Positions 10,180-31,645 of a DNA stretch of 34,608 nucleotides are shown here, one piece after another. Under the pieces are notes generated by a model that saw nothing but the letters and a program-made list of their open reading frames with translations, had not been told where the DNA came from and did not search any database. Source of the DNA: a virus. The stretch lies in IMG/VR virus record IMGVR_UViG_3300047551_001398, positions 1 to 34,608 of that record. The stretch is one strand, 5' to 3'. Each line of letters starts with the position of its first letter. Position 1 is the stretch's first letter. A program made the position numbers and the translations under genes.

Positions 10180-10188
10180 AGGTATATC

Positions 10189-11088: not shown

Positions 11089-11089
11089 G

Positions 11090-12640: not shown

Positions 12641-12646
12641 TACATT

Positions 12647-13990
12647 ATGGAACACATACTCAAATCAGTTGAAGACTTCATTAAAGAAAAGCAAGCCTCT
12701 AAGAAATGGAAGGCTGGTGTTGATTGGGTTCAATACGCAGGGCCTTATTTTGGAACGGAGGAATACACCGAATCAGTAAAGACTCTGCTTGAAGGCTGGT
12801 TGGTTCTAGGATCAAACGGTATTCGCTTTGAGCATCAGTTCCCCAATCTGATGGGCAAAGAGTACGGTATCTTAACTAACAGCGGAAGCAGTTCAAACTT
12901 GATAATGATGTCGTGTATGACCTCTAAGCGTTTAAACAATTTCCCAAAAGGAACCAAAGTAATAACTCCTATTGCAGGATTTCCCACTACAATAAATCCA
13001 ATCTTTCAGGTTGGGTTTGAGCCAGTATTTGTTGATATAGATTTGGATACTTTGAATCTGAATTTAGATCAGGTTGAGCAGAGAGCAAAAGAGGGATGTC
13101 GTATAATAACTTTTGCTCATGTTCTAGGCAATCCTCCAAACATGGATAGATTGATGGAGATTGTTAACCGATACAATCTTGTTTTACTTGAAGACTGTTG
13201 TGATGCTTTGGGATCAACCTATGGCGGAAAGTCTCTAGGTAGTTTTGGTGAGTTTGCTTCATGTTCATTTTATCCTGCTCATCATATCACTATGGGAGAA
13301 GGTGGATTTGTTGCAACTCGCACCAAAGAACAAGAGATTGTTGCTAGAAGTTTCCGTGAGTGGGGAAGAGGTTGCTATTGTGTAGGAAAGCAGGCGAATT
13401 TTTTGAAGAACGGCAGTTGCAAGAAGAGATTTTCAAATTGGCTTCCTGCCCTACCAAATGAGATTTTTGACCACAAGTATGTGTATGATGAGATAGGATA
13501 TAACTTGAAGCCGACAGATCAACAGGCTGCTATGGGTCTTGTTCAGGTTAAGAGATTACCCAAGATTATTGAAATACGAAAGCATAACCATGCTAGACTG
13601 TGTAAGATGTTCTCCAAGTATGAAGAGCATTTCATCATTCCAAAAGCAACCGAGAATTCTGATCCTGCGTGGTTTGCGTTTGCAGTAACCTTGAAAGATG
13701 GATGTTCATTCAAGCGTAACGATATTGTTGACTACTTTGAAGAGAACAAGATTCAAACTAGACCATATTTTGCAGGCAACATCATGCTACAGCCTGCGTA
13801 TGAAGGGCTGATGGATCCTGAGCGAGTAGTTAAAGATTATCCTAATGCAAGAAAGGTTACAACCGATACATTCTTCTTGGGAACTAGTCCAGTCATAACA
13901 GACGAGCAGTTAGATTATATTGAATCAACTTTAGATGATTTTATGACCAAAAGAAGAATTCATTTACCTATTATGAATACTGAAATTTAA
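12647..13990 (+). CDS. RfbH/DdhC-like PMP-dependent [2Fe-2S] 3-dehydrase (3,6-dideoxyhexose synthesis)
   Basis: 447 residues of the DegT/DnrJ/EryC1 fold but with the dehydrase signature SFYPAHHITMGEGG (207-220). H212 replaces the PLP lysine, as in ColD and RfbH/E1, which remove the C3 hydroxyl of NDP-4-keto-6-deoxyhexoses instead of transaminating. Three cysteines fit the E1 iron-sulphur pattern I recall as C-x57-C-x1-C-x7-C: C185-x57-C243-x1-C245. The last Cys is at C258 (x12), behind a five-residue longer loop. KRFSNWLPALP...YDEIGYNLKPTDQQAAMG also matches RfbH. No E3-type reductase is visible here. It would act after a 4,6-dehydratase such as the gene at 14672. Confidence 0.85.
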   Translation: MEHILKSVEDFIKEKQASKKWKAGVDWVQYAGPYFGTEEYTESVKTLLEGWLVLGSNGIRFEHQFPNLMGKEYGILTNSGSSSNLIMMSCMTSKRLNNFPKGTKVITPIAGFPTTINPIFQVGFEPVFVDIDLDTLNLNLDQVEQRAKEGCRIITFAHVLGNPPNMDRLMEIVNRYNLVLLEDCCDALGSTYGGKSLGSFGEFASCSFYPAHHITMGEGGFVATRTKEQEIVARSFREWGRGCYCVGKQANFLKNGSCKKRFSNWLPALPNEIFDHKYVYDEIGYNLKPTDQQAAMGLVQVKRLPKIIEIRKHNHARLCKMFSKYEEHFIIPKATENSDPAWFAFAVTLKDGCSFKRNDIVDYFEENKIQTRPYFAGNIMLQPAYEGLMDPERVVKDYPNARKVTTDTFFLGTSPVITDEQLDYIESTLDDFMTKRRIHLPIMNTEI

Positions 13991-14670
13991 TGAGTAAACT
14001 TCAACTAAAAAATATAACAATATTGTCATACAACTGTGTTGACCCAATACAGAGTGTTAAAGCATTATTGTATAGTTCTAAAGACATAGATTTTGCTGAC
14101 ATGATATTGGTTAGCAATAACAAACCCGAAAAAACACCATCAAGCATAAGATTTGTAAAAACTGACGCTAAAACTCATCAAGAGTCTTCAAGATTTACTT
14201 ATGAACTTTTGCCTCAGTTAATAGAAACAAAATACTGCTTGATGATACACGATGATGGATTTGTTATAAATCCGCATTTATGGACAGATGAATTTTTGCA
14301 GTATGATTACATAGGAGCCCCTTGGAAAAATTTGGGGCAAAGAAATCGAGTTGGTAACGGCGGATTTGTTTTGAGAAGTAATAGATTTATTCAGTTGACA
14401 AGAAATATTAGATATCTTGGTACGCATGATGATACTGAACAAACAAACGATTATTATGATTACTATACTAGATGTGGTTGCAAGTATGCACCTTTAGAAG
14501 TTGCTATGAAATTTTCTTTAGAATCTAAAATACCCGAGTGTGAGTATAATTTAGATAATTGTTTTGGATTTCATGGTAGAGGAAAACCAGAAACCACCTC
14601 GGTTCACGACGGTCACTATAAAATGTTTCAAGATAAAATAAAACTGTTAGACACAGTAGATTTGGGGTAA
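13990..14670 (+). CDS. DUF5672 family protein (glycosyltransferase-like)
   Basis: 226 residues resembling the DUF5672 family, which is found within glycan loci and looks like a GT-A enzyme. Visible: ITILSYNCVDPIQSVKAL at the N-terminus, YCLMIHDDGFVINPHLWTD with HDD (87-89) as a DxD-like site, YDYIGAPW, and RVGNGGFVLRSNRFI, the family's most recognisable segment; CFGFHG near the end. ATG shares one base with the previous stop (TAATG). Markedly AT-rich compared with the dehydrase before it. Substrate unknown. Confidence 0.7.
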   Translation: MSKLQLKNITILSYNCVDPIQSVKALLYSSKDIDFADMILVSNNKPEKTPSSIRFVKTDAKTHQESSRFTYELLPQLIETKYCLMIHDDGFVINPHLWTDEFLQYDYIGAPWKNLGQRNRVGNGGFVLRSNRFIQLTRNIRYLGTHDDTEQTNDYYDYYTRCGCKYAPLEVAMKFSLESKIPECEYNLDNCFGFHGRGKPETTSVHDGHYKMFQDKIKLLDTVDLG

Positions 14671-14671
14671 A

Positions 14672-15622
14672 ATGAAAGTATTGTATGTAACAGGATGCTT
14701 AGGATTTATAGGCTCACATGTCACCAGACTTTGTTTAAAGAAAGGTTGGCATGTTAAAGGAATTGATAAAATTACTTATGCCGCTAACGATGAACTCTTG
14801 AAAGAGTTCTTAATGTATCCAAACTTTTCATTTGTTCAATGTGATATCAATGATCTTAAATTTCTATACGATTGTGACTACATTGTAAACACTGCCGCAG
14901 AAACACATGTTGGTAATTCTATTGCCAACAGTGATGACTTTATTAGTTCTAACATTAACGGTGTTCACAACATACTTGAATTAATTAAGAACTATCGGCA
15001 AGAAAATGGTAAAACTCCAACTTTTTTACATTTTAGCACAGATGAAGTTTATGGTGACATAGCAGAGGGGGCGCATACTGAACAAGATTTGCTAAAGCCT
15101 TCAAACCCATATTCTGCCACTAAAGCGGCCGCCGATATGTTGGTATTGGCTTGGGCTAGAACTTACAAGATTCCGTATGTAATAGTTAGACCCACCAACA
15201 ACTACGGTATAGGTCAGTATGTTGAAAAACTCATACCAAAGGTTTGTAAGTATTTGCATTTGGGAAGAAAGATTCCTTTACACAATAACGGAACCCCAAT
15301 ACGAAATTGGTTACATGCTGAGGACACCGCTAGAGCCATAATCACCATAATTGAATCAGAAACCAAAAATGAAATATACAATATTTGTGGTGGATTTGAG
15401 CAATCAAATTTAGAAACTGTTACAAAAATTCTAGAGGTTTTGGGTGTTAAAGAGAATCATTACTCAGATTACATAGATTTTTCTTACAGTAGACCAGGAC
15501 AAGATGTTAGATATGCGTTAGACGATTCTAAACTCAGAAAATTGGGATGGAATCCTATCAAAAACTTTGATGAAGAACTTCCTGCCATAGTTAAATACTA
15601 TAAAGAGAATTTTATTTGGTGA
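14672..15622 (+). CDS. NDP-glucose 4,6-dehydratase-like SDR (RmlB/RfbB type)
   Basis: Extended short-chain dehydrogenase, 316 aa. NAD site TGCLGFIGSH (7-16); catalytic STDEVYGD (S122-D129, D124/E125 being the dehydratase acid/base pair of RmlB); YSATK (Y147, K151); RPTNNYG; and a C-terminal RPGQDVRYALD...LGW that is very RmlB-like. The expected reaction is NDP-glucose to NDP-4-keto-6-deoxyglucose. The base (dTDP or CDP) cannot be read: the TDE motif favours dTDP, whereas the RfbH-like enzyme upstream classically uses CDP-sugars. ATG two bases after the previous stop. Confidence 0.88.
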   Translation: MKVLYVTGCLGFIGSHVTRLCLKKGWHVKGIDKITYAANDELLKEFLMYPNFSFVQCDINDLKFLYDCDYIVNTAAETHVGNSIANSDDFISSNINGVHNILELIKNYRQENGKTPTFLHFSTDEVYGDIAEGAHTEQDLLKPSNPYSATKAAADMLVLAWARTYKIPYVIVRPTNNYGIGQYVEKLIPKVCKYLHLGRKIPLHNNGTPIRNWLHAEDTARAIITIIESETKNEIYNICGGFEQSNLETVTKILEVLGVKENHYSDYIDFSYSRPGQDVRYALDDSKLRKLGWNPIKNFDEELPAIVKYYKENFIW

Positions 15623-15631
15623 AAGATAAAC

Positions 15632-16210
15632 ATGGAAGGCTATACTTTAACAAGACAAGCAAAAGAAGTAGTTAGAGATATTTTAACTTCGAATAACTCT
15701 GGAAATTATTTGGAGATAGGTTCTTACTATGGTGTTATGATTTCAGAACTGGCTGAAGAATTTCCTAGTAAGATTATGTACTCTATAGATCCTTTTATTG
15801 CAGACGGGTGGACGGGACAACCAAAAGATGAAGAATTAGTGGATATAGAAAAGGGATTTAAAATTAATATTGCTCCTTATTCTAATATAAAGCACTATCG
15901 TTTAAAAACAAAACAATTTATTGACGAAACTCTGCATAAAACTTTAGAAAATGTGACAGTAGTTTATGTTGATGGATCTCATATTTTTCAAGATATTTTG
16001 ATAGACATACAACTAGTAGATGAATTGTATAAAAAATGTCAAACAGATTTTCATGTCATTTTTGATGATTTGCACATTGAAGATGTTCAAATAGCAGTTC
16101 ACCAATTCCGAGAAAAATACGCTGATAACATAATTCACAGATGCGAAAAAAACAACATGTTTACTTTTATAATGAGATCATATAATGAATCTAAAGAAAA
16201 CAATAGTTGA
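15632..16210 (+). CDS. Class I SAM-dependent methyltransferase (Methyltransf_24-like)
   Basis: 192 residues. Motif I YLEIGSYYG (26-34), a MYSIDPF motif II region with acidic residue, and VYVDGSH (111-117), typical of sugar O-methyltransferases in surface-glycan clusters, followed by DDLHIEDVQIAVHQF. AT-rich. Probably methylates a hydroxyl or amino group of a sugar made or transferred by this island. Its last 26 bases overlap the start of the transketolase N-half, so the two are probably translated in sequence. Confidence 0.75.
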   Translation: MEGYTLTRQAKEVVRDILTSNNSGNYLEIGSYYGVMISELAEEFPSKIMYSIDPFIADGWTGQPKDEELVDIEKGFKINIAPYSNIKHYRLKTKQFIDETLHKTLENVTVVYVDGSHIFQDILIDIQLVDELYKKCQTDFHVIFDDLHIEDVQIAVHQFREKYADNIIHRCEKNNMFTFIMRSYNESKENNS

Positions 16211-16805
16211 AATTGCTTACAAGCATAAACTAGGTCATTTGGGTAGTTACTTCTCATCTGTTGATATCATAGATCAAATATATGGCAACATGGGCAAGGA
16301 TGACATCTTCATCTTGTCTTCAGGACATGCTGCCGTTGCTTTATATGCTTGCCTACAGAAGCACCGTGGTATAAACGCTGAAGAGATGTTTTTGAAGCAC
16401 GGTGGGCATCCACACCGTGACGAGGCTAATCAAATCTACTGCTCAACGGGAAGTCTTGGCTTGGGCATCACAATTGCATTAGGAAGAGCCGTAGCCAATC
16501 CAAATAGAAAGGTTTGGGTTCTTGTAAGCGATGGAGAGTGTGCCGAGGGTAGCGTGTGGGAGGCTTTGAAAACAATTCGTGAGCAGAACATTCAAAATAT
16601 TGAGGTTCATGTTAATGTGAATGGTTATGCTGCTTACATGGAGGTAGATCAGCAATACCTAACAGATAGGTTGAAAGCATTCCTTCCAGAGATTAAGATA
16701 CACTACACCACAGTTGAACAGTTTCCGTTTTTAAAAGGATTGAATGCACACTATCATGTTATGAAGGAAACCGACTACAAGCAAGCATTGGAGATGTTAA
16801 AATGA
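16185..16805 (+). CDS. Split transketolase, N-terminal (TPP-binding) subunit
   Basis: 206 residues covering the transketolase pyrophosphate domain: GHLGSYFSS (17-25), LSSGHAAVALYA, KHGGHPHRD, CSTGSLGLGITIALGRA, and VSDGECAEGSVWEA (114-127). In the TPP/Mg motif the first Gly of GDG is Ser (S115-D116-G117) and the motif's distal Asn lies in VNVNGY (144-148). The partner pyrimidine domain is the next gene, joined by ATGA. Such split pairs occur in secondary metabolism and surface-sugar loci. Transfer of a two-carbon ketol unit to make an unusual ketose or branched sugar is plausible. About 70 residues shorter than typical split N-halves. Confidence 0.85.
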   Translation: MNLKKTIVEIAYKHKLGHLGSYFSSVDIIDQIYGNMGKDDIFILSSGHAAVALYACLQKHRGINAEEMFLKHGGHPHRDEANQIYCSTGSLGLGITIALGRAVANPNRKVWVLVSDGECAEGSVWEALKTIREQNIQNIEVHVNVNGYAAYMEVDQQYLTDRLKAFLPEIKIHYTTVEQFPFLKGLNAHYHVMKETDYKQALEMLK

Positions 16806-17278
16806 GAAAGCAATTTGCAGAACTTCTTTACGATGCTATGGCAGCAAACTCAAAAATTTATCTAATAACTGGAGACTTGGGTTACGGGCTCTGGGATAAA
16901 ATTCGAGATGATTACAAGGACAGATTTTATAATGTTGGATCATCCGAAATGGCTATGATGGGTATGGCTATAGGATTGGCTATGGACGGAAAGATTCCGT
17001 TTGTATACTCTATTAGCCCGTTTGCAATCTACAGACCTTTTGAAATGATAAGAAACTATCTTAGCCACGAAAAAATTTCAGTCAATATTATTGGTGGTGG
17101 CAGAGACAAAGATTATGGATACTTGGGATTCTCGCATTGGGCTGAGGATGATAAAAAAATAATGAGAACTCTAGACAATTTGCGAGTTTTACATCCTGAA
17201 ACTGTAGAAGACATGGTGAAGCAATTTGGTGAAATTTTAATAAATCCTCAACCAACTTATATGAATCTCCGAAAATGA
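16802..17278 (+). CDS. Split transketolase, C-terminal (pyrimidine-binding) subunit
   Basis: 158 residues that match the transketolase pyrimidine domain only; the usual third (C-terminal Rossmann-like) domain is absent. Y-LITGDLGYG near 20-29, YNVGSSEMAMMGMAIGLAM with the cofactor-activating Glu E49, then FVYSISPFAIYRPFEMIRNYL, equivalent to the F-x2-F-x2-R-x-x-EQIR helix of transketolase and DXS. Start overlaps the N-subunit stop by 4 bases (ATGA), so a 1:1 complex is expected. The short form suggests a minimal heterotetramer. Confidence 0.85.
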   Translation: MRKQFAELLYDAMAANSKIYLITGDLGYGLWDKIRDDYKDRFYNVGSSEMAMMGMAIGLAMDGKIPFVYSISPFAIYRPFEMIRNYLSHEKISVNIIGGGRDKDYGYLGFSHWAEDDKKIMRTLDNLRVLHPETVEDMVKQFGEILINPQPTYMNLRK

Positions 17279-18060
17279 AGAAGCCAACTGTTTTGATAAC
17301 TGGAGGTAACGGTTATATTGCCAAAAGTCTTAATCGTGAACTTTGTTCCCGTTATGATGTCACTACTATTTCTAGAGCAAATTTTGATCTTTCTGATACT
17401 GATGCACTAAACAATTGGTTTTCAGGTAAAATTTTTGATGTGGTTATTCATGCTGCTGCAACAGGAGGTAGTCGTCTTAAATCTGATAGCCACCATGTCT
17501 GCGATCAAAATGTGAAAATGTATCGTAATATGCTTGCAAACCGAGATAGGTTTGGAAGGTTAATACACTTTGGTTCTGGTGCAGAATTATTTCATCAGAC
17601 ACAATATAGTCTAAGCAAAACAGAAATAGCAAAGTCTATACAAGACACTGAGCAGTTTTACAACATAAGAATATTTGGTGTGTTTGATGAAAATGAACTT
17701 GAAACTCGTTTCATACGATCAAGCATAACTCGTTATTTGAATCACGAACCAATACAGATACACACCAACAGAGTTATGGATTTTTTCTATATGAAAGATT
17801 TGGTATCTTTGGTTGAATTTTACATCAACGATTTAAATCCAAGCAAAGAAGTTAACTGCTCTTATGAACAAAAATATACTCTGAAAAACATAGCCAAACT
17901 TATAAATTTCATGGGAGATCATACTGTTCCTATCATTGTTCAAAACCCAACAAACTTGGAGTTTTACTGTGGCGAAAGTAATCTGCCAGAAATAGATACC
18001 TATGGTCTTGAAGCCGGTGTTGAATTGACTTACAAAGAACTTTTTAGAATGAGGAAATAA
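17275..18060 (+). CDS. NAD(P)-dependent epimerase/reductase (extended SDR)
   Basis: 261 residues. Nucleotide-binding ITGGNGYIA (8-16), VVIHAAATGG, IHFGSGAELF in the position of the catalytic Ser/Thr strand, YSLSK (Y111, K115) and IRIFGVFDENE. Resembles GDP-fucose-synthase or RmlD-like epimerase/reductases, but the C-terminal half is short and diverged. It probably epimerises or reduces a keto sugar made by the 4,6-dehydratase, 3-dehydrase or transketolase. Coupled by ATGA to the transketolase subunit. AT-rich. Confidence 0.75.
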   Translation: MKKPTVLITGGNGYIAKSLNRELCSRYDVTTISRANFDLSDTDALNNWFSGKIFDVVIHAAATGGSRLKSDSHHVCDQNVKMYRNMLANRDRFGRLIHFGSGAELFHQTQYSLSKTEIAKSIQDTEQFYNIRIFGVFDENELETRFIRSSITRYLNHEPIQIHTNRVMDFFYMKDLVSLVEFYINDLNPSKEVNCSYEQKYTLKNIAKLINFMGDHTVPIIVQNPTNLEFYCGESNLPEIDTYGLEAGVELTYKELFRMRK

Positions 18061-18061
18061 A

Positions 18062-19009
18062 ATGGCAGAGAATGCAGTTATAATCTATATGTCTCGAATG
18101 AGAGACATCCCCCTTCTGTTCAGGAGCATATCTCTCCTGTGCATGAATTTTAGTAAAGCCAAAGAGTATCCGATAGTTGTCTTTCACGATGATATTGATA
18201 AGCCCACCATAGCAAATTTAATGGTGGCTCTACACAGACAATTGGGATATTTTCCAAATATAAAATTTGAACTGTTGACATTTGAGATGCCGTCTTGGGT
18301 TTCTACTGACCCAAACATGTACACTGTGTCTTTGAATGAGGCATGGATGGGATATCGACATATGTGTAGATTCCACTCTGGTGGAATTTATATGGATTCT
18401 AGACTACAGAATTACGATTACTACTGGAGACTTGATTCGGATTCTTATCTGTTCTCTCCAATTAATTACGATCCATTTGAAAAGATGCGTACTAATGGAT
18501 ACGAGTACGCATACATGTGTGATGAAGAAGGCGAAATACCCCGAGTAGTTGAGGGATTATGGGAAGAAACTGAGCGGTTTATGCAGGATAACAATATTCC
18601 CATGACCGAGTACTTCAAGAGTCGATTGGTTGATGGTAAATGGAACTATAATATGTTCTACACCAACTTTGAAATCGCCAAGTTCTCTTTCTTCCGCAGT
18701 AAAGAGTATATGGCGTATTTTAATCAACTAGACAAGACTGGTAATTTTTATTATAAGCGTTGGGGAGATGCCCCAATCCATTGGCTAGGTGTACGAATGC
18801 TAATGGATCCTAACAAGGTTTGGGCTGTTAAGGATATCACCTATCAGCACAATGCTTGGATGCGTAATTTGAGTGCTATTCCCAATAAGGAAATACCACA
18901 AGCCGTTTTGAATATAATAAATGGTGACGAGTACAGAAAGCAAAGATTGCTTTACGGTATGAATCGCTATTTAACTACTGGTGTAGATAAACTTAATTGG
19001 GGAGAATGA
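18062..19009 (+). CDS. GT15-like (Kre2/Mnt1-type) glycosyltransferase, copy 2
   Basis: 315 residues, the stronger of the two GT15 matches. AVIIYMSRMRD, VVFHDDI, GYRHMCRFHSGG, YYWRLDSDSYLF (D125/D127), YTNFEIAKFSFFRSKEYMAYF (E204 at the Kre2 nucleophile position), GNFYYKRWGDAPIHWLGV (W234-G235-D236). The RWGDAP-[IV]-H string is nearly the same as in fungal alpha-1,2-mannosyltransferases. It aligns along its length with the 10189 protein, so the pair arose by duplication and divergence. No signal or membrane anchor. ATG lies 2 bases after the previous stop. Confidence 0.8.
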   Translation: MAENAVIIYMSRMRDIPLLFRSISLLCMNFSKAKEYPIVVFHDDIDKPTIANLMVALHRQLGYFPNIKFELLTFEMPSWVSTDPNMYTVSLNEAWMGYRHMCRFHSGGIYMDSRLQNYDYYWRLDSDSYLFSPINYDPFEKMRTNGYEYAYMCDEEGEIPRVVEGLWEETERFMQDNNIPMTEYFKSRLVDGKWNYNMFYTNFEIAKFSFFRSKEYMAYFNQLDKTGNFYYKRWGDAPIHWLGVRMLMDPNKVWAVKDITYQHNAWMRNLSAIPNKEIPQAVLNIINGDEYRKQRLLYGMNRYLTTGVDKLNWGE

Positions 19010-19010
19010 T

Positions 19011-19613
19011 ATGTATTCACAAGCATTTCAAGATGAATTTGTTGATATCGTTCTGAATGGTCAGACTGAAGGTTACTTTGTTGATGTTGGTGGTGCGTGT
19101 GATGACCACAAAAATGGAAGCAACAGTTTGATGTTTGAGGAGAGAGGATGGAAGGGAGTTATTGTAGATTCAGAAGCACATAGAATGGTTGGAAGATCGT
19201 GTCTTTGTGTATCGAGTTGGATTGGAGATGGTAGTGAAAACACAAAACTGCTTGGTGAAGTTTTAAAGCAAAATCAAGTTCCCACTATAGTTGATTATCT
19301 TTCGATTGATATTGAAGGGCAGGACTACAACGCTGTGAAATCTTTTGTTGAGTCTGGATTTACTTTCAAAGTGGCAACAATTGAACATAACTTATATTCT
19401 CGAAATCCTGGAGTGGATCAGTTAAAGGCTAATATTTTCAACTTGCTTGCTTCCAACGGTTATGTTAGAATAGTAGACAACGCGGGTCATACAGCAACTA
19501 AAAAGAATCTAAACTCAGGTTGGCCTTTTGAAGACTGGTACATAAACCCGAAGTATGTGAACTATCTAGAAACCGTCAAGAAATTAAAGAGTTTACGAGA
19601 AGCATCAGTATGA
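19011..19613 (+). CDS. FkbM-like SAM-dependent methyltransferase
   Basis: 200 residues with the FkbM (Methyltransf_21) pattern: SQAFQDEFV at the start, FVDVGGACD (23-31) as the AdoMet motif, NSLMFEERGWKGVIVD (38-53), then DYLSIDIEGQDYNAV (95-109) and a long C-terminal strand. These enzymes O-methylate sugars in O-antigens and natural products. It is the second methyltransferase of the island and lies between a GT15 copy and the 19610 transferase. Overlaps the next gene by 4 bases (ATGA). Confidence 0.8.
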   Translation: MYSQAFQDEFVDIVLNGQTEGYFVDVGGACDDHKNGSNSLMFEERGWKGVIVDSEAHRMVGRSCLCVSSWIGDGSENTKLLGEVLKQNQVPTIVDYLSIDIEGQDYNAVKSFVESGFTFKVATIEHNLYSRNPGVDQLKANIFNLLASNGYVRIVDNAGHTATKKNLNSGWPFEDWYINPKYVNYLETVKKLKSLREASV

Positions 19614-20518
19614 GAATTGACAAGGTTGTATTTTCTTGTTCCGAGGCTTTCAGTCCTTGGTGGAATATTCAATCCAAAATTTGGAAAACCAAATTTGGAA
19701 TTGAGCCAGTTTGTCTTCTGTTCGGAGATAAGAAGAACTGTCCTGTTTCGGAAGAGTACGGAAATATTGTGGAAATGCAGTACAACCCAACTTTGCCTAA
19801 AATCATACAGATACAGTTTTCAAAATTCTACTACCCAAAAACAGAACCCGATACCACATGGATCATCGGTGACATGGATCAGATACCACTACAGACAGAG
19901 TATTTTTTGGATGGATTAGAATCTGTTTCCGAGGATGCGTATGCTAATCTAAATTATACTTTAACTGCTCAGATGCGTCCAGGAATTCGTTCTGATGGAT
20001 ATCCTGGTATTCCCGCAGACTCGTTTGTTAAACGCGGCGGTGCGGTGAATGGTGGTTATGATCTTCCCGGTCACTATCATGTCGCTAAAGGTAAATTGTT
20101 TGAAGAATTGTTCTTTAAAGACAAGACATTTGAAGAAGTAGTTCGTTATGTTATGGAGTCTAAGCGATACGGTTTTCACACGGAAGAATCTCAAAAAACT
20201 TTAACCAAAGCCATACATGGAGAGTTTTGGGTTGCCGAAGAGAGTTACACATCCGAACAACTGTGGTATGGTTTGCGTCGTGGTATTGTTAAAGAATTCT
20301 ATGGTAAAGAGTATCATATTTGGAATCAAAAGATTGACCGAGTAGGAAGATTGGTAGATTCAAACGGAAAATGGATTCCTCAATGGAATGGCACAAATTA
20401 TATTTACGATGAGGCTAAACTTCGTAACAAAGGATATATGGATTTACATTGCCATCGTCCTTACCATGAGCAAGAAAAGGCTATGCTTAAAATTTTAGAG
20501 ATTGCGAGGATGATATGA
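19610..20518 (+). CDS. Putative glycosyltransferase-like protein, tandem copy A
   Basis: 302 residues, same family as the next gene. Shared blocks: KVVFSCSEAFSPWWNIQSKIW at the N-terminus, TTWIIGDMDQIPLQ around 83-96 with a GDMD metal-like site, LPGHYHVAKGKLFE, AEESYTSEQLWY and an IDR...WNG...DLHCHRPY end. A DxD-like motif, a Trp-rich body and the surroundings point to a GT-A enzyme, but I cannot name a family. Less AT-rich than copy B. Coupled by ATGA on both sides. Confidence 0.6.
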   Translation: MRIDKVVFSCSEAFSPWWNIQSKIWKTKFGIEPVCLLFGDKKNCPVSEEYGNIVEMQYNPTLPKIIQIQFSKFYYPKTEPDTTWIIGDMDQIPLQTEYFLDGLESVSEDAYANLNYTLTAQMRPGIRSDGYPGIPADSFVKRGGAVNGGYDLPGHYHVAKGKLFEELFFKDKTFEEVVRYVMESKRYGFHTEESQKTLTKAIHGEFWVAEESYTSEQLWYGLRRGIVKEFYGKEYHIWNQKIDRVGRLVDSNGKWIPQWNGTNYIYDEAKLRNKGYMDLHCHRPYHEQEKAMLKILEIARMI

Positions 20519-21453
20519 AGATTGATAAAATTGTTTTTTCTGCTACTGAAAAGTATAGTCCATTTTGGAACTATCAATCAAAAGTTTGGAATAAACTTGG
20601 TGTAACTCCTGTGTTATTGCTTTGGGGAGAAGTGAAAAATACTACAGTTGATGACACTTACGGAGAAGTTATAGAAAAAAAATATTCTGATGATGCTATA
20701 AAATCTCTTCAAATGACTTGGAGCAAATTTTATCATACAAGCACAGAACCAGAAACAACTTGGTTGATAGGAGATATTGATTTATTTCCTTTACAAAGTA
20801 ACTATTTTCTGTCAAATCTAAAAGATATTTCTAATGATTCTTATGCACATTTAGCCTGTAGACATCAAACTCGCCACGAACCTCCAGCATATTTTGATGG
20901 AAAGGGCAGCGAATTAACTGGTGGTCAAAACCTTCCTGCGTATTATCATTTGGCTAAGGGAAAAATTTTTGACTCTGTTTATAAATTTACATCCACTAAC
21001 TTTTTAGAGTATGTTAACACAATAGTTTCTCAAAAAGTATATGGAAGGGGCATACCACAAGAGTATATGAGATTAACTCCAAAACAAATCGCAAGCAGCA
21101 TGAACTCTTTAGGAACTAATTTAGGAGCCAAACATTCCATAGAACCATTTTGGTGTGCAGACGAAAGTTATTCTTCAACCATGTTATGGAACGCTATTAT
21201 TAATAAACTTGTAAATTTTACAGGTTTAAATTTTTCTGTGGCAAATCCCAATCCTTATTTGTGGAATAGAATAGACCGATGTAATTGGGATGGCTCTGAT
21301 TATTCGTTTGTTGATCTAAAAAGATTGCGTAATAATCAATATATTGATTTTCATTCTGTAGGCCCATCTGAGTCTATGGATAATATAGTTGCTTCTTTTG
21401 ATAAAATTGAACATCCTTTAAAGCAAATACTGAGTGTTGCAGGAATGCTATGA
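20515..21453 (+). CDS. Putative glycosyltransferase-like protein, tandem copy B
   Basis: 312 residues, diverged paralogue of the gene before it (KIVFSATEKYSPFWNYQSKVW; TTWLIGDIDLFPLQ; LPAYYHLAKGKIF; ADESYSSTMLW; WNRIDR). It has a ~25-residue insert near the middle (YMRLTPKQIASSMNSLG). Base composition is much more AT-rich than copy A, so the two may have been acquired from different phage backgrounds rather than duplicated in place recently. Likely transfers a different sugar or uses a different acceptor. ATGA coupling at both ends. Confidence 0.6.
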   Translation: MKIDKIVFSATEKYSPFWNYQSKVWNKLGVTPVLLLWGEVKNTTVDDTYGEVIEKKYSDDAIKSLQMTWSKFYHTSTEPETTWLIGDIDLFPLQSNYFLSNLKDISNDSYAHLACRHQTRHEPPAYFDGKGSELTGGQNLPAYYHLAKGKIFDSVYKFTSTNFLEYVNTIVSQKVYGRGIPQEYMRLTPKQIASSMNSLGTNLGAKHSIEPFWCADESYSSTMLWNAIINKLVNFTGLNFSVANPNPYLWNRIDRCNWDGSDYSFVDLKRLRNNQYIDFHSVGPSESMDNIVASFDKIEHPLKQILSVAGML

Positions 21454-22856
21454 ACTTAGTTTGTATTTCTGGCAGTTCAGGAGTAGGTAAAACTACCGTA
21501 TCAAAACTGATACAATCTGTGCTTGGAACCAAAGAGTGTTTATGTCTAAGCGGAGATGATCTTCACCGGTGGGAAAGAAACGATCCCATGTGGAAAATCA
21601 AAACTCACCTAGATCCTCAGTCAAATGATCTTGAGATGGGGTATGCTCATTTGTTGGAATTATCCAACGGCAACTCTATAATCCGAAAGATTTACAATCA
21701 CGATACCGGTAAGTTTGATTTTGCCGCAACCATTTCTCCAAAACCTTGGGTTGTATACGAGGGGCTTCATGCTTTGTACCATAGACCAACAGCAGACATG
21801 GCAACTCTTAAGATTTTCGTAGACACAGATGAAACCCTAAAAACCGAGTGGAAAATTAAAAGAGACACTAAAAAAAGAGGATATACCGAGAAGCAAGTCA
21901 TAGAGATGATGAAGCGTAGAAAGATTGATGAGGATCGCTTCGTAACAGTTCAAAAGAAAGAAGCAGATATCGTTATAAAGTTTACTCGCAACCGAGATGC
22001 TTCTGTTTCTTTAGACTATGTTTCTGTTAACGGTAGAGGAGTGGAATTGATGGAAACCGTCAAAGAGTTCTACGATTCCATGATGGACTTTATGAGCGTC
22101 TGTAAATGGCTATCTCTTGATCCGGCATTAGTTCAAGGTAGAGGGGGCAATGTTTCCGTGAAGTCTGATAGTGGCTTATTGATTAAAGCATCTGGTGCTA
22201 AAATGGCTGATGTAAATCTACATCACGGGTTTTGTGTGTGTGACTTTAATAAATCTATACCAAACGAGTTTCAAAATGAGGACGAGTATACCAATTGGGT
22301 TCAGAGTTCAAACAAAACCGGTGAACATAGACCATCTATGGAAACTGGATTTCATGCTTTGCTAACAGACCGAGTGGTGATTCATACACACCCAATTCAT
22401 TTGAACGCAATTTTGTGCAGTAAAGAAGGCAAGTCCTTGATTGCCAATTTGTTTTCTGATATGACCTACGAGTATGTGGAGTATGTTAAGCCTGGCTCTT
22501 GTTTGATGTCTAAAATTTCCACAGATAAGAGTGTGTTCTTTCTTGAAAATCACGGACTTATTGTTACGGCTAAGGATGCACAAGAAGCGTTTGAAACCAC
22601 GGAGAGAATCAATAGTAGATGCAAAAGGTGGTTAAGTAATCATGTTGAATCGTTTGTTGATACTGAAGAAAGTGAAACAGTAAACTCTCCACTTTTTCCT
22701 GATGCTGCTGTATTTCCAAACGAAATGCAGTCAACCAACAACTACATACTAGGTCTGTTGACAGGAGCATGTTTAACACCTAAATTTTTAAGCATGAGTG
22801 AGATTGAATCTCTGAACGCCATGCCTTCGGAGAAATACAGAAAGGCTTTAGTATGA
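21450..22856 (+). CDS. Fusion of a uridine-kinase-like P-loop kinase with a class II aldolase
   Basis: 468 residues. Residues 1-~190: P-loop kinase of the uridine kinase/phosphoribulokinase type, with Walker A GSSGVGKTT (8-16), LSGDDLHRW, YEGLHALYH and a lid-like RDTKKRGY. Residues ~205-440: class II aldolase/adducin fold, with QGRGGNVSVK (phosphate site, ~229-238), SGAKM, PSMETGFHALL (catalytic Glu E298), IHTHPIH (metal His H312/H314) and ENHGLIV (third metal His, ~H368). Active-site residues look intact in both halves. A phosphorylated hydroxy-sugar made by the kinase could be the aldolase substrate, or the reverse. ATGA couples it to both neighbours, the next being a nucleotidyltransferase. 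Confidence 0.85.
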   Translation: MNLVCISGSSGVGKTTVSKLIQSVLGTKECLCLSGDDLHRWERNDPMWKIKTHLDPQSNDLEMGYAHLLELSNGNSIIRKIYNHDTGKFDFAATISPKPWVVYEGLHALYHRPTADMATLKIFVDTDETLKTEWKIKRDTKKRGYTEKQVIEMMKRRKIDEDRFVTVQKKEADIVIKFTRNRDASVSLDYVSVNGRGVELMETVKEFYDSMMDFMSVCKWLSLDPALVQGRGGNVSVKSDSGLLIKASGAKMADVNLHHGFCVCDFNKSIPNEFQNEDEYTNWVQSSNKTGEHRPSMETGFHALLTDRVVIHTHPIHLNAILCSKEGKSLIANLFSDMTYEYVEYVKPGSCLMSKISTDKSVFFLENHGLIVTAKDAQEAFETTERINSRCKRWLSNHVESFVDTEESETVNSPLFPDAAVFPNEMQSTNNYILGLLTGACLTPKFLSMSEIESLNAMPSEKYRKALV

Positions 22857-23677
22857 AAATTATTGTGCCTATGGCAGGAACAGGTAATCGTTTTGTTGAG
22901 AAGGGATACAAAGATCCCAAGCCTCTGATTCGGGTGAACGGGAAAAGAATCATTGAATACATTCTAGAGATGTTTGATCCAAATGATGAGATTGTATTCA
23001 TCTGCAATGATACTCATTTAGCCACAACTGATATGCGAGATGTGCTTCTGAGTTTGAAGCCAAACGCTACGATTGTATCCATGCCACAGCACAAGTTGGG
23101 CCCTGTATGGACTGTTAAAGCGGTATACGAACATATTAAAGACGATGAAGAAGTTATTGTTTCATACTGTGATAATCCACACCTTTGGAGCATGGAAGAT
23201 TTTAGAGATCATGTTAAACGATATCAAATGGACGGGTGTATTCTTACTCACACAGGATTTCACCCGCACACCTTAGCAAACACCAAAATGGCATTTGTGA
23301 AAGATGTCGCAGGAACACCATACATTACCGAAATCAAAGAAAAGGCTTGCTATACTGATAATCCGATGAATGAGCATGCTTCTACTGGCATGTATTACTT
23401 CAAGCGTGGCTCGGATATCAAGAAGTATTTTGATCTTGCGATGGAGCGAGGTGTACAGTATAATGGCGAGTTCTATGTTACATTGGTTTACAACTTACTG
23501 ATTCAAGACGGGCTAAAGGTTGGGTATTACGATACTCCGTTTGTTACCGTGTTTGGAACTCCTGAAGAAGTGGAGAACTTTGAGGCTTGGGCAACCATAA
23601 CCCGAGGCAAGCAAGTAAAGTCTGTAGATGATCTGATTAACTGCTATCTGTATTGGGACTCGTATCACAATGACTAA
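22853..23677 (+). CDS. Sugar-1-phosphate nucleotidyltransferase
   Basis: 274 residues of the NTP_transferase fold. N-terminal IIVPMAGTGNRFVEKGYKDPKPLIRVNGK carries the G-x-G-x-R nucleotide-binding signature and the PKPLI motif. Further on, VSYCDNPHLW is the metal-binding D region, then EIKEKACYTDNPMNEHASTGMYYFK and NGEFYVTLVYNLL as in glucose-1-P thymidylyl/cytidylyltransferase-like enzymes. It would activate a sugar phosphate to NDP-sugar for the island's dehydratases and transferases. The sugar and base are not evident. Overlaps the HAD gene by 8 bases. Confidence 0.85.
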   Translation: MKIIVPMAGTGNRFVEKGYKDPKPLIRVNGKRIIEYILEMFDPNDEIVFICNDTHLATTDMRDVLLSLKPNATIVSMPQHKLGPVWTVKAVYEHIKDDEEVIVSYCDNPHLWSMEDFRDHVKRYQMDGCILTHTGFHPHTLANTKMAFVKDVAGTPYITEIKEKACYTDNPMNEHASTGMYYFKRGSDIKKYFDLAMERGVQYNGEFYVTLVYNLLIQDGLKVGYYDTPFVTVFGTPEEVENFEAWATITRGKQVKSVDDLINCYLYWDSYHND

Positions 23678-27172: not shown

Positions 27173-28393
27173 ATGCTATCATTTTCTTGCTATAATACTC
27201 CTAATTCAATCAACGAAGCCAACAAAGGTGGTCATATCAGCCACCTTGAAGACGGCATGTTTGAAGAAGGTTATGCAGGACTTCAAGCATCCATTAAAAT
27301 TTTAAAAGATGTTGCTAACAGCGTTTCCGCATCAGGTAAAGCGGTTCCGTCTGTTAATGTGTCTACCAAGTGGGATGGTGCTCCGGCTTTAATTGTAGGA
27401 ACTCACCCTGAAACCAAGAAGTTCTTTGTAGCCACCAAGTCTTTCTTCTCAAAAACTTCAAAGGTTAACTATACTGAAGCAGATATCCGTGCTAACCATG
27501 AAGGTGGTGTGGTGGATAAACTGATTCTTGCTCTGAAATATTTGAAACCTTTGAACATTCGTGGTATTGCTTGGGGCGACTTGCTGTTCACTCAAGCCGA
27601 GAAAAAAGCAGAAACTATTGACGGCAAAAGTTACATTACCTTCCGTCCTAATACCATTACATACGCGGTTCCTGCTAATAGTCCAACAGGAATGGAAGTA
27701 GCCGCTGCTAAGTTTGGTATCGTGTTCCACACAAAGTGGAGCGGAAGCGGAGATCCGAAAGAGCGTTCTTCATGGTCGCCTGGTGTTCCTCCTATGGGAA
27801 CTTCAACAGGAGTTTGGATTGTAGACGCTAAAGTTCCTACACTTCCAAAGAACATGTTGTTGCAGTCCGCTGAAGAAAAACAATTTGTAGACTTGGTTGC
27901 CAAGATTGAAGCAAACGCTGGTTCAATGAAATCTGCACTTGTATCTTTCTTGAAGAGTGAAGCCGCTGAGTATGTTGCACAGTATGTAAACGCAACTGTA
28001 AAAGCAGGCTTGTCAAACAATACAGCCAACGGTCTTGCTGTGTTTATTCAATCTCGTATTGCTGCGGAAGTGGAAGCCTTAAAGACTGATGCCAAGAAAA
28101 AAGAAAAGCAGGAAAAGGTTGCAAGAATTACCAAGTATCTTAAAGCATATGCATCACAGATTGACTTGCTGTTTGGTTTGCATGCCATGATTGCTAAAGC
28201 CAAAGCAATGATTATATCTAAACTTTCTCTTACCCAAACTGTTTCAACTTTCATTGGTGACAAAGACGGATATCGTCCAACCGCACCTGAAGGTTTCGTA
28301 GCAGTTTGTGGTAAGACATGTCGTATCGTGAAACTTGTTGACCGCAACGAGTTCTCACGCAACAACTTTAATCTAGCAAAGGAATGGAAGTGA
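27173..28393 (+). CDS. DUF6267-like protein with KWDG ligase/nucleotidyltransferase-type motif
   Basis: 406 residues. Resembles a family common in T4-like cyanophages, in which an HLED motif (24-27) precedes TKWDGAPA. K66-x-D68-G69 fits motif I (KxDG, adenylated Lys) of the ligase/capping nucleotidyltransferase superfamily. RGIAWGDLLF (130-139), ITYAVP (162-167), GIVFHTKW (182-189) and WIVDAKVP (215-222) are where motifs III, IIIa, IV and V would lie. Activity is inferred. The N-terminus MLSFSCYNTPNSINE|A has an I-x-E site like T4 prohead-protease cleavage sites. The start is set by the ATG after the late box; GGAG lies only one base away, so initiation may be leaderless. Confidence 0.65.
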   Translation: MLSFSCYNTPNSINEANKGGHISHLEDGMFEEGYAGLQASIKILKDVANSVSASGKAVPSVNVSTKWDGAPALIVGTHPETKKFFVATKSFFSKTSKVNYTEADIRANHEGGVVDKLILALKYLKPLNIRGIAWGDLLFTQAEKKAETIDGKSYITFRPNTITYAVPANSPTGMEVAAAKFGIVFHTKWSGSGDPKERSSWSPGVPPMGTSTGVWIVDAKVPTLPKNMLLQSAEEKQFVDLVAKIEANAGSMKSALVSFLKSEAAEYVAQYVNATVKAGLSNNTANGLAVFIQSRIAAEVEALKTDAKKKEKQEKVARITKYLKAYASQIDLLFGLHAMIAKAKAMIISKLSLTQTVSTFIGDKDGYRPTAPEGFVAVCGKTCRIVKLVDRNEFSRNNFNLAKEWK

Positions 28394-31383
28394 AGAAACT
28401 AACACAAGTCATTACCGAAGCACCCAAGAAAGAAAAGTCAATTGTTATTGGTGTTGGTAGATTTAACCCACCAACAACAGGACACGAAGTTCTTGTAAAT
28501 AAAGTAATGACAGAAGCACAAAAGATCAGTGCTGAGTTTTGCATTTACGCTTCATATTCTCAAGACCCAAAGAAAAACCCGCTAGATGTAAAAACCAAAC
28601 TTGATCTGCTCAAAAAGTTTTTTCCAAAGATGAAGTTTCAGGCTATGCCTAAGCCTTTCCCAAACAAGGATGGAAAAACTGTTGCAGGCCCATATGCTAT
28701 TGCACAAAAATTGAGTGATGCAGGATATACACGAGTTTACATTGTTACAGGTGCAGATCATATGGCAGAATATAACAAAATTAAGCAATACATTGACACA
28801 GATCCAAAGAGCACAGAAGGATATAAGTTCTCGGATTTCAAAGTTATCAATGCTGGTGCTCGTGATCCTGATGCTGAAGGAGTTCAAGGCATGTCGGCTT
28901 CCAAGATGCGTAAAGCAGTATTTGATGGCGACTTTGATGCGTTCCGTGAAGGCGTTCCTGCTCATGTTAAGGACGCAGATGCAAAGAAAATGTTCATGGC
29001 AGTTAAGAAAGGTATGCAACTAAAAGAAGAGTGGTTGTGGGAAGAAAAGGCTTCTGATGTAACCATTCTTTGCTTAACCTCGGCTGAAGGCAGCACAGAC
29101 GGTTCTTCCATAGAAAAAATGGAAAAGAGTTGCAAAAAGAAGGGTATTGCATTTCATGTGATAAAGATGAAATACGCTCACATCAATTCAATGGAAGCAA
29201 GTGGTGAAAAGATTACCATTGAGATGAATGAAGGTGAAGATAAACCAAAGAAATTAACAATAAAGCCACAGAATACTCTGTGCTTTGTTCGTGGCGGTGT
29301 TATGAACTCAGAACTAGGAGTTGGTCTTGCCACAGTATTACAAAATAACGGTGTGTTCATGGTTAACGAGAAGGGTGCTATGGAAATTTGTGCAAACAAA
29401 TTGCAAACTGCTCTAGCCCTTCAGAAGTATAACCTGCCACACCCAAGAACTGCTTTTGTTTCAAACGAAGAATCGGTTGAAACGGCTATGAAGGCTATTG
29501 GTGATAAATATCCTGTTGTAGTTAAGACTGTAACAGGAGCAGAAGGTATCGGCGTTTCAATCATTGAAAGCGAGAAGTCTTTGCGTTCTGTTCTTCAGTC
29601 TTTATGGAAATTTGGTGCAGAAGTTATCTTACAAGAGTTCTTGCCAGGATTTAAAAATGATGTTCGCTCAATTGTTCTAAATGGCAAGATATTTGCCTGT
29701 GCAAAGCGTGACAAGGCTAAAGGAGATTTTAGAACTAATATTGCTAGAGGTTCCTCAGGGGGAGCATTCAAGTTAAGTCCAGAAGAGATTGAACTTGTAG
29801 AAAAAGTTGCTTTAGTTAGCAAATGTTATTATGTTGGTGTTGACCATGTTGTGGTTAACGGCAAGCCTTATGTTATTGAGATGAACGCTTCGCCAGGTAG
29901 TGGCAACATGTATACTCTTTACGAAAACGGTAAGCCAACCGAAGAAGTGGACGGTCAAGGATTGATTGATGCTTTAATTGAACATGTAAGCAACAAGTCT
30001 AATTGGAAACTTTTTGCCAGCGTTGCTGTTACTGAAAATATAATGGTAGATGGAGTCGAATATACGGCAAAAATTGATACTGGTAATAGCGGATACAATT
30101 CAATTGACGCAAACGATATCAAGATAAATGAAAAAAATCACACAGTATCTTTTAAACTAAATGGAAAATCTTTAAAGAAAAATATTGTAAGTAGAATAAA
30201 GATAAGAAGAGGTGGCACAGAAGAAAGAGAAATCCGCCCAATAGTTTTAATGGATGTTGAATTTGCAGGTAGAGAATACAAAAATGTTAAATTCTCTTTA
30301 GCAAACAGAGAACATATGGATTATAAAGTTTTGATTGGTTTGAGATTTTTAAGACAAACAGGAATGCAAGTTAATCCTAAAGAGATGGTTGCGTCCACAC
30401 CAAAAACACAAAAAGAGGAGTTGAATATGAACGAGGGAGCAGCACAAGCAAGCCCAAAAGATAAAGAAACAGGCTTGCCTAAAAAGTATGTTTCAGGATT
30501 AAGCCGTGCAGATGCCAAGGCTAGAGTACAACAGTTTGCTGCTCGCAAGGCTCGTTCAGATTCAGATCCAAAAGCATGGGAAAAACTTCCAGGTGATCCT
30601 AAGAAAACTGCTAGACGATCTAAGTATTCAATAGCATTTGCTAAAAAGTTTGGAACAAAATCTGAAGCAGTTGAAATACAAGAAATTCTTGAACAGGCAG
30701 TAGTATTGGACAATCAACAGAGCATTTCTTCTAGAATTGAAAAAGCAAGAGAACTTCAAAGTGGGGTTTTAACTGTAGAAGAAAAAGATGCTTGGGATGT
30801 ATACATTCAAGAGCAAAAGAAAATGATGTATGCAGAACACGCTCCCAAATCTCCTGCAACACTTGACGAAGAATTTGAGTGGATTCTTTACGAGCATACC
30901 GATGAAATCAGTTTTTCACGAAAGATTTTTAAAGAAGTTTTAGAGGTTGGAACAAATAAAATTCGTAAAACCTATGCTAAAGACACTCCAGGTCAAAATG
31001 ATATTGCTGAAGAAATGGACGACGAAGAAAAAAATAGCATCTACAAAGAATGGTCTAAACTTGTAAACATGGGGGCCAAGGAACTTCAAAACTTTATTGA
31101 CTCGGAAGACGGCAAAGAAGCAGGGTTGTCTAGAAAAGAAGCAGGCAAAGCAGGAACGGGCGGAGGTAAGATAACTTCAGGTAGAGACTCAGCCCGCGCT
31201 ATAGTTAGAATGCTTGGCAAGAAAAAAGATGATTGGCAGGCAGGAGATTGGAAATGGGCAAACAAACAAATTTCATTTATCAGTAGAATGAAGGGAGCCA
31301 AAGGCCCACTTCGTGATGATAAAGGTAGACCCACAAGAAAATTATTAGCCCTAAAAATTTGGGGTCATAATCCGGAGAAATAA
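28390..31383 (+). CDS. Multidomain fusion: NMNAT-like nucleotidyltransferase, RimK-like ATP-grasp ligase, retropepsin-like protease, C-terminal phage domains
   Basis: About 997 residues from GTG 28390 (GTGA overlap, AAAGGA 6 bases away; the ATG at 28384 abuts that SD). Domain 1 (~17-200): cytidylyltransferase fold with GRFNPPTTGH and GMSASKMRKAV. Domain 2 (~220-535): RimK-type ATP-grasp with VVVKTVTGAEGIGVSI (ATP Lys) and VIEMNASPGSG; RimK adds glutamate to ribosomal S6. Domain 3 (~540-660): retropepsin-like RimB/PF05618-type protease, AKIDTGNSGYNSI (catalytic DTG) and YKVLIGLRFL. Domain 4 (~680-770): GLPKKYVSGLSRADAK, DUF6321-like. Domain 5 (~890-997): GRDSARAIVRML...GRPTRKLLALKIWGHNP. N-terminus MKKLTQVITE|A resembles a capsid-targeting peptide. 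Confidence 0.8.
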   Translation: MKKLTQVITEAPKKEKSIVIGVGRFNPPTTGHEVLVNKVMTEAQKISAEFCIYASYSQDPKKNPLDVKTKLDLLKKFFPKMKFQAMPKPFPNKDGKTVAGPYAIAQKLSDAGYTRVYIVTGADHMAEYNKIKQYIDTDPKSTEGYKFSDFKVINAGARDPDAEGVQGMSASKMRKAVFDGDFDAFREGVPAHVKDADAKKMFMAVKKGMQLKEEWLWEEKASDVTILCLTSAEGSTDGSSIEKMEKSCKKKGIAFHVIKMKYAHINSMEASGEKITIEMNEGEDKPKKLTIKPQNTLCFVRGGVMNSELGVGLATVLQNNGVFMVNEKGAMEICANKLQTALALQKYNLPHPRTAFVSNEESVETAMKAIGDKYPVVVKTVTGAEGIGVSIIESEKSLRSVLQSLWKFGAEVILQEFLPGFKNDVRSIVLNGKIFACAKRDKAKGDFRTNIARGSSGGAFKLSPEEIELVEKVALVSKCYYVGVDHVVVNGKPYVIEMNASPGSGNMYTLYENGKPTEEVDGQGLIDALIEHVSNKSNWKLFASVAVTENIMVDGVEYTAKIDTGNSGYNSIDANDIKINEKNHTVSFKLNGKSLKKNIVSRIKIRRGGTEEREIRPIVLMDVEFAGREYKNVKFSLANREHMDYKVLIGLRFLRQTGMQVNPKEMVASTPKTQKEELNMNEGAAQASPKDKETGLPKKYVSGLSRADAKARVQQFAARKARSDSDPKAWEKLPGDPKKTARRSKYSIAFAKKFGTKSEAVEIQEILEQAVVLDNQQSISSRIEKARELQSGVLTVEEKDAWDVYIQEQKKMMYAEHAPKSPATLDEEFEWILYEHTDEISFSRKIFKEVLEVGTNKIRKTYAKDTPGQNDIAEEMDDEEKNSIYKEWSKLVNMGAKELQNFIDSEDGKEAGLSRKEAGKAGTGGGKITSGRDSARAIVRMLGKKKDDWQAGDWKWANKQISFISRMKGAKGPLRDDKGRPTRKLLALKIWGHNPEK
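30414..30429 (+). promoter_or_regulatory. Strong internal ribosome-binding site and in-frame ATG within the fusion gene
   Basis: AGAGGAG (30414-30420), six bases, then ATG (30427), in frame with the fusion. Translation here would give a separate ~318-residue protein starting MNEGAAQASPKDK that holds only the two C-terminal domains. It lies exactly at the boundary after the retropepsin domain, so it may be the original start of a gene later fused, or a working second start. Confidence 0.55.
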
Positions 31384-31384
31384 A

Positions 31385-31645
31385 ATGAAAAATTTTAAAG
31401 ATTTAAAAAAAGAATTAGAATTAACAGAAACTATTAAAGCAGTTAAAAATAAAGCCGCTAAGTCTGGCATATCGTATGCAATTTTAAAGAAAGTTTACGA
31501 CCGAGGTATGGCTGCTTGGAAAGGCGGCCATAGACCCGGAGCAACTCCACAGCAATGGGCATTGGCTAGAGTCAACTCATTTTTAACAGGCGGTAAAACA
31601 CGAACAACTGCTGATGCGGATCTTTGGAAGAAAGCAAAAGGATAA
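31385..31645 (+). CDS. Small conserved phage protein (DUF5824-like)
   Basis: 86 residues. The core AKSGISYAILKKVYDRGMAAWKGGHRPGATPQQWALARVNSFLTGG is a motif I have seen in many phage and virus proteins of unknown function. The tail TTADADLWKKAKG repeats the last residues of the lysozyme downstream (GDLWKKANG). N-terminus MKNFKDLKKELELTE|T contains an L-x-E site at residue 15, like T4 capsid-targeting leaders. AT-rich. ATG one base after the previous stop. May be a packaged DNA-associated protein (inference). Confidence 0.65.
   Translation: MKNFKDLKKELELTETIKAVKNKAAKSGISYAILKKVYDRGMAAWKGGHRPGATPQQWALARVNSFLTGGKTRTTADADLWKKAKG

What the first reader, a model, noticed from the sequence alone, without database searches (positions are those of the whole stretch)
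28390..31383. NMNAT-like + RimK + retropepsin + two phage domains in one ~997-residue protein
RimK ligases and RimB-type retropepsin proteases are known as partners in bacterial ribosomal S6 modification (rimABK). Here they are fused and joined to an NMNAT/cytidylyltransferase domain and two phage domains. Key motifs are intact in each part (FNPPTTGH, ATP-grasp Lys, DTG). This may be a single machine that modifies ribosomes or another host protein with amino-acid tails, or a polyprotein that its own protease separates.
Basis: partly seen in the sequence, partly recalled or inferred. Interest (0 to 1): 0.8.

Follow-up and report, generated by a model that had tools for sequence, protein, structure and literature searches.

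The report
Phage fusion of three enzyme domains
A T4-like aquatic phage makes one long protein that joins a nucleotide-transfer enzyme, an enzyme that adds glutamate tails to proteins and a protease of the kind that removes such tails, and its relatives carry start signals like those that send proteins into a phage head, so it may enter the host together with the viral DNA.

Summary
One ORF (28384-31383, 999 aa) joins a HIGH-type nucleotidyltransferase ("NMNAT-like", 17-212), a complete RimK-type ATP-grasp ligase (226-540), a RimB/RloA-type retropepsin (547-667, Asp565) and small phage domains. Fifteen further contigs carry it at 85-90% identity; deeper relatives keep the fusion. Stand-alone phage RimK-retropepsin proteins are common, and a 2008 paper reported them. 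The domain order is the reverse of the bacterial RimBK hybrid.

New here: (1) RimK-retropepsin is built into a cyanophage-type locus (DUF6267, nucleotidyltransferase, DUF5824), whose nucleotidyltransferase carries SET or kinase-like modules in other phages. (2) N-termini of both protein families resemble the T4 capsid-targeting sequence, and a (L/I)-x-E site, as cut by T4 prohead protease, is kept at the enzyme junction in 11 of 11 relatives. Others' proteomics found both protein types in virions. I favour a head-packaged, injected effector whose modules the prohead protease separates. Delivery is inferred; the phage's own head genes were not found.

Self-cleavage is not supported for this copy (longest Glu run 2), but a sister lineage has exactly six glutamates, RimB's minimum, just after the protease. 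The ligase's target is unknown; S6 is a guess.

The parts
28384..31383 (+). whole ORF, 999 aa: nucleotidyltransferase-RimK-retropepsin-phage domains
   Evidence: conserved in 15 contigs at 85-90% and deeper relatives
28384..28419 (+). residues 1-12, MEVKKLTQVITE|A: capsid-targeting-like N-terminus with an (L/I)-x-E site
   Evidence: disordered in the model; hydrophobic-x-E site kept 11/11; family-level similarity to T4 IPII/IPIII; the window copy alone scores 16, just under the background 95th percentile of 17
28432..29019 (+). residues 17-212, HIGH-type nucleotidyltransferase (cytidylyltransferase/NMNAT-like), FNPPTTGH and MSASKMR motifs
29020..29052 (+). residues 213-223, disordered junction with L-W-E|E (I-T-E|A in L035, I-P-E|A in L138)
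29059..30003 (+). residues 226-540, RimK-type ATP-grasp amino-acid ligase, catalytic residues conserved
30022..30384 (+). residues 547-667, RimB/RloA-type retropepsin; DTGN at 565-568
30385..30450 (+). residues 668-689, flexible linker with M-N-E|G (L-G-E|A and others in relatives; hexaglutamate in the sister lineage)
30451..30678 (+). residues 690-765, small basic phage domain (SPKDKETGLPKKYVSGLS...)
   Evidence: conserved in relatives; weak phrog_38321 hit
31048..31362 (+). residues 889-993, DUF3140/DUF6321-like C-terminal domain
27173..28393 (+). upstream gene, DUF6267; a PHROG model shows it fused to the nucleotidyltransferase in other phages
   Evidence: phrog_455
31385..31645 (+). downstream gene, DUF5824; a PHROG model shows it fused to the nucleotidyltransferase in other phages
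   Evidence: phrog_3041

Best explanation
The protein is a head-packaged effector of a T4-like phage. Its N-terminus acts as a capsid-targeting sequence, so it is built into the prohead core. The phage's prohead protease cuts after (L/I)-x-E, removes the targeting peptide and separates the nucleotidyltransferase from the RimK-retropepsin part (RimKB), and perhaps RimKB from the C-terminal domains. The pieces enter the host with the DNA. RimKB then adds amino-acid (most likely glutamate) tails to a host protein and trims them with its own retropepsin, as a tunable writer and eraser; translation machinery such as S6 is the leading guess. The nucleotidyltransferase acts on a nucleotide-type substrate, possibly in NAD metabolism. 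Shown: domain content, conserved fusion, intact motifs, targeting-like N-termini and junction sites at family level. Inferred: packaging, cleavage, injection, enzyme activity. Guessed: targets.
For: Folds and catalytic residues. Fusion conserved in one well-supported clade (100/100) inside a phage RimKB family that excludes E. coli and S-RIM12 RimK (99/99). N-terminal similarity to the T4 IPII/IPIII targeting sequence: background of 777 ORFs mean 7.3 (sd 5.4, 95th percentile 17); 21 stand-alone RimKB N-termini mean 19.6 (14 above the 95th percentile); 67 nucleotidyltransferase N-termini mean 19.4 (35 above the 99th). A stricter motif gives 20/23 RimKB and 36/80 nucleotidyltransferases against 12/345 background. 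The hydrophobic-x-E site is kept 11/11 at the N-terminus and 11/11 at the enzyme junction while the surrounding residues change, and both places are disordered in the model. T4 gp21 cuts after L/I-x-E and the first 10 IPIII residues suffice for packaging (PMC9026906). LC-MS of YerA41 particles found a 'ribosomal protein modification protein' (PMC7354516), consistent with the RimKB gene annotated 'structural protein'. Mass spectrometry of cyanophage S-CREM2 virions found its cytidylyltransferase (PMC10665884).
Against: No prohead protease, gp23, portal or sheath gene was found in the window or any related contig tested, although Mosig rang as control in the family searches; these contigs are fragments. 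The window N-terminus alone does not exceed the background 95th percentile. A genome-wide count of the weak motif shows no excess (14 observed, permutation p about 0.4). (L/I)-x-E is a loose motif that also occurs inside domains, and the junction may be the nucleotidyltransferase's own C-terminal helix. YerA41 RimKB lacks the motif. The S-CREM2 authors warn of possible co-purification. No activity or target is known.
Confidence: 0.5

Rival explanations
1. It is an ordinary intracellular phage enzyme made after infection: RimKB modifies host ribosomes or another host protein and the nucleotidyltransferase supports metabolism. The N-terminal motif is incidental and the fusion only ensures co-expression.
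For: Stand-alone rimKB lies beside the translation repressor gene and near DNA polymerase in Mosig, and the Melnitz RimK-only gene lies between a translational regulator and, one small gene further on, the polymerase: replication-type neighbourhoods. YerA41 lists its gene with non-late genes. Phage rimK was proposed to act on translation in 2008 (PMC2530865).
Against: Similarity to a T4 targeting sequence in two unrelated protein families and detection of both in virion preparations.
Confidence: 0.3
2. It is a polyprotein that its own retropepsin separates.
For: Sister proteins L138, L139 and L143 carry exactly six glutamates about 20 residues after the retropepsin core; only these 3 of 1001 ORFs of 150 aa or more have such a run. 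RimB cuts internal polyglutamate (PMC11957791).
Against: The window protein and its close relatives have no Glu run above 2. The three sister sequences may stand for one evolutionary event.
Confidence: 0.1
3. The retropepsin domain no longer cuts; it serves as a built-in activator of the ligase.
For: RimB stimulates RimK besides cutting (PMC11957791), and the DTGN context differs from the DTGA of the archaeal RimB-like ORF in L114.
Against: DTG is invariant in the phage RimKB sequences aligned.
Confidence: 0.1

Closest known systems
Marine phage RimK with C-terminal DUF785/PF05618 (Monier et al. 2008, PMC2530865)
   Same: same ligase-then-protease order, in T4-like marine phage contigs, one of them next to regA
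   Different: not described as fused to a nucleotidyltransferase or C-terminal phage domains; packaging not considered in the passages read
Bacterial RimBK hybrid (Desulfotalea psychrophila DP2392, PMC11957791)
   Same: RimK and RimB in one polypeptide
   Different: retropepsin is N-terminal, the reverse order; no nucleotidyltransferase or phage domains reported
RimABK and RloABC systems of Pseudomonas (PMC7343187, PMC12239564)
   Same: a RimK-type ligase paired with a retropepsin
   Different: separate genes; RloA is secreted; no phage domains
Cyanophage cytidyltransferase with DUF6267/DUF5824 neighbours
   Same: same locus and domain as the N-terminal third; same order after the helicase in S-CREM1
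   Different: no RimKB module in the S-CREM1 protein
T4 internal head proteins IPI, IPII, IPIII and Alt
   Same: N-terminal targeting peptide ending in a prohead-protease site
   Different: no similarity of the mature proteins was sought or seen; packaging here not shown

Membership tests
RimK-type ATP-grasp ligase | ATP-grasp fold over the full length | tested here: met
   Z 27.7 to 7qys, 286 aligned residues; TIGR00768 E 2e-41 but 142.1 bits against a cut-off of 143.4
RimK-type ATP-grasp ligase | catalytic Lys, Arg, Asp, Glu and Asn residues | tested here: met
   invariant with E. coli RimK in alignment A5
RimK-type ATP-grasp ligase | adds glutamate to S6 | not testable with these tools
   needs an assay; the bacterial hybrid RimBK failed it
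RimB/RloA retropepsin | PF05618 domain with DTG motif | tested here: met
RimB/RloA retropepsin | cuts polyglutamate as a dimer | not testable with these tools
   needs an assay
bacterial RimBK hybrid | retropepsin N-terminal to RimK | tested here: not met
   order is RimK then retropepsin
NMNAT | HIGH-type nucleotidyltransferase fold and motif | tested here: met
NMNAT | NMN as substrate | tested here: inconclusive
   best solved-structure profile hits are weak and not NMNAT (UPF0348, PPAT)
T4-type capsid-targeted internal head protein | N-terminal targeting peptide ending in L/I-x-E | tested here: met
   family-level evidence; window copy alone is borderline
T4-type capsid-targeted internal head protein | prohead protease in the same phage | tested here: inconclusive
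   no head or sheath gene among those sought in the available fragments
T4-type capsid-targeted internal head protein | found processed inside virions | not testable with these tools
   only relatives reported in particle proteomics

The most novel reading that the evidence does not exclude
Aquatic T4-like phages use a capsid-targeted nucleotidyltransferase as a shared N-terminal platform that carries interchangeable effector modules (RimK-retropepsin, SET, kinase-like domains), released by the prohead protease and injected into the host: a virion-delivered, modular effector system.
Probability: 0.35. Interest if true: 0.8.

Novelty: new variant of a known kind. Interest (0 to 1): 0.55.

Why it matters
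If the packaging model is right, phages inject an enzyme pair that writes and erases amino-acid tails at the very start of infection, and rimK genes known in marine phages since 2008 gain a concrete place of action. It would also mean that gene fusion to a packaged enzyme is a route by which phages load new effectors into the head. The idea is directly testable by virion proteomics of isolated phages such as Mosig.

Tried and rejected
Chance or assembly artefact: rejected, the fusion recurs in many contigs. Cyanophage host: photosystem family PF00124 gave no match in the window or related fragments, so the host stays unknown. Genome-wide excess of the weak targeting motif: not found, so the claim rests on the family tests. 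Head genes in related contigs: none found, uninformative. L019, at 52%, is broken by many frame changes in its assembly and was left out of most protein comparisons. A single-sequence model of residues 546-999 was useless (pLDDT 38). Foldseek and VIA lists of the whole model against solved structures were filled by the ATP-grasp domain, so the nucleotidyltransferase and retropepsin folds rest on sequence profiles, on viral Foldseek matches for the nucleotidyltransferase, and on model confidence. L147 (nucleotidyltransferase, about 300 aa, RimKB) lies outside the fused clade, but the tree does not resolve whether it is an independent fusion.

Full report
OBSERVATION. The record is an IMG/VR virus fragment of 34,608 bases. 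Its DNA polymerase is closest, at 50% identity, to T4-like Synechococcus phages, and it carries genes for a translation repressor, a UvsX-like recombinase and a DnaB-like helicase. Family searches and a 38-sequence AlphaFold2 model agree on the layout: nucleotidyltransferase 17-212, RimK-type ATP-grasp 226-540, retropepsin 547-667, then a long, poorly modelled C-terminal part with a DUF3140/DUF6321-like end. The RimK part matches solved RimKs at Z about 27 and keeps the residues that E. coli RimK shares with the phage forms. The retropepsin matches solved RloA-type proteases.

HOW COMMON. Fifteen further viral contigs carry the same fusion at 85-90% identity. Deeper relatives (RimKB about 61-82% identical) keep it: L033, L035, L036, L138, L139, L143. 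RimK followed by retropepsin without the rest (mostly 455-490 aa) occurs in about 60 other viral contigs, in Pelagibacter phage Mosig and in Yersinia phages YerA41 and GN1. A tree places all phage RimKB apart from E. coli and S-RIM12 RimK (99/99), the fused ones in one clade (100/100), and the RimK-only gene of phage Melnitz inside the stand-alone RimKB group (99/97), which suggests that it lost its protease. Phage RimK with this C-terminal domain was reported from marine metagenomes in 2008 (PMC2530865). The characterised bacterial hybrid has the opposite order (PMC11957791).

THE PLATFORM. PHROG models show DUF6267 fused to the nucleotidyltransferase (phrog_455) and the nucleotidyltransferase fused to DUF5824 (phrog_3041); here these are the neighbouring genes on either side. 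The order helicase, then upstream gene, then nucleotidyltransferase is as in cyanophage S-CREM1. In other viral contigs the same nucleotidyltransferase heads long proteins with a SET domain (L145, L156), a Zeta-toxin/AAA kinase-like domain (L164, L196) or DUF5824 (L185, L189). It thus looks like a stable first module followed by exchangeable ones. L147 joins it to a distant RimKB with about 300 aa between.

CAPSID TARGETING. T4 internal head proteins IPII and IPIII begin MKTYQEFIAE|A. Ten N-terminal residues of IPIII are enough for packaging, and gp21 cuts after L/I-x-E (PMC9026906). Stand-alone RimKBs begin, for example, MKAPKFKEFISE|A, MQVHNFKDYISE|A or MQVQPFKNYLEE|A, and nucleotidyltransferases MKSFKQFVTE|A or MKSFSRFLSE|A. 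Scored against the T4 peptide, 777 other ORFs average 7.3 (sd 5.4); RimKB N-termini average 19.6 and nucleotidyltransferase N-termini 19.4. These sequences are related within each family, so the counts are not independent; but the two families are unrelated to each other. The window N-terminus, MEVKKLTQVITE|A, scores 16, just below the 95th percentile, so it is suggestive only by itself. A weak-motif count over the genome fragments showed no excess.

JUNCTIONS. The model has flexible stretches at 1-14, 215-223 and 660-706. In 11 of 11 fused relatives a hydrophobic-x-E site lies in the first and an (L/I)-x-E site in the second, although the residues around it differ (LWE|E, ITE|A, IPE|A); 8 of 9 have a hydrophobic-x-E site in the third. 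This fits cutting by a prohead protease into modules but does not prove it, since the motif is loose. No head or sheath gene was found in the available fragments, so the protease itself could not be checked.

PARTICLE EVIDENCE BY OTHERS. YerA41 particles contained a 'ribosomal protein modification protein' (PMC7354516), consistent with the RimKB gene annotated as structural protein. S-CREM2 virions contained the cytidylyltransferase (3 peptides), with the authors' caution about co-purification (PMC10665884).

SELF-CLEAVAGE. RimB needs six contiguous glutamates, or five if the first is the terminal encoded one. The window protein has none above 2. L138, L139 and L143 have exactly six, about 20 residues past the retropepsin core, and they are the only 3 of 1001 ORFs with such a run. 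L138 and L143 are sisters in the tree (100/100), so the run may have arisen once. In that lineage the protein may be its own substrate.

VERDICT. A confirmed and conserved new fusion built from known parts. The most likely role is a head-packaged, injected effector whose modules the phage's prohead protease separates (confidence 0.5). The ligase target is not known, and S6 is only the leading guess.

Noticed in passing
window 8862-23677: A block with sugar-related genes (glycosyltransferases, aminotransferase, nucleotide-sugar epimerases) lies between uvsX and the helicase, which are near neighbours in S-CREM1.
   Followed up: no
window 1917-2852: A Mom-like DNA modification protein (phrog_1384, E 3e-19), followed by a DNA methyltransferase at 3181-4194.
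   Followed up: no
L145 3851-7801; L156 2126-6775: Phage nucleotidyltransferase proteins of 1317 and 1550 aa with a SET domain near the C-terminus.
   Followed up: partly
L164 2729-4903; L196 3875-6589: Phage nucleotidyltransferase proteins with a Zeta-toxin/AAA_33 kinase-like domain after the first module; NadR-like ribosylnicotinamide kinase was not ruled out.
   Followed up: partly
L100 82-1131: Melnitz RimK without retropepsin falls inside the RimK-retropepsin group, which suggests loss of the protease.
   Followed up: partly
L185 1069-4494: Nucleotidyltransferase protein with a weak indoleamine 2,3-dioxygenase match (E 1e-4, below cut-off) and DUF5824.
   Followed up: no
L102 741-2264: A RimK-retropepsin gene on a 5.4-kb contig binned as Candidatus Izimaplasma; it has a targeting-like N-terminus (GIVE|A) and may be viral.
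   Followed up: partly
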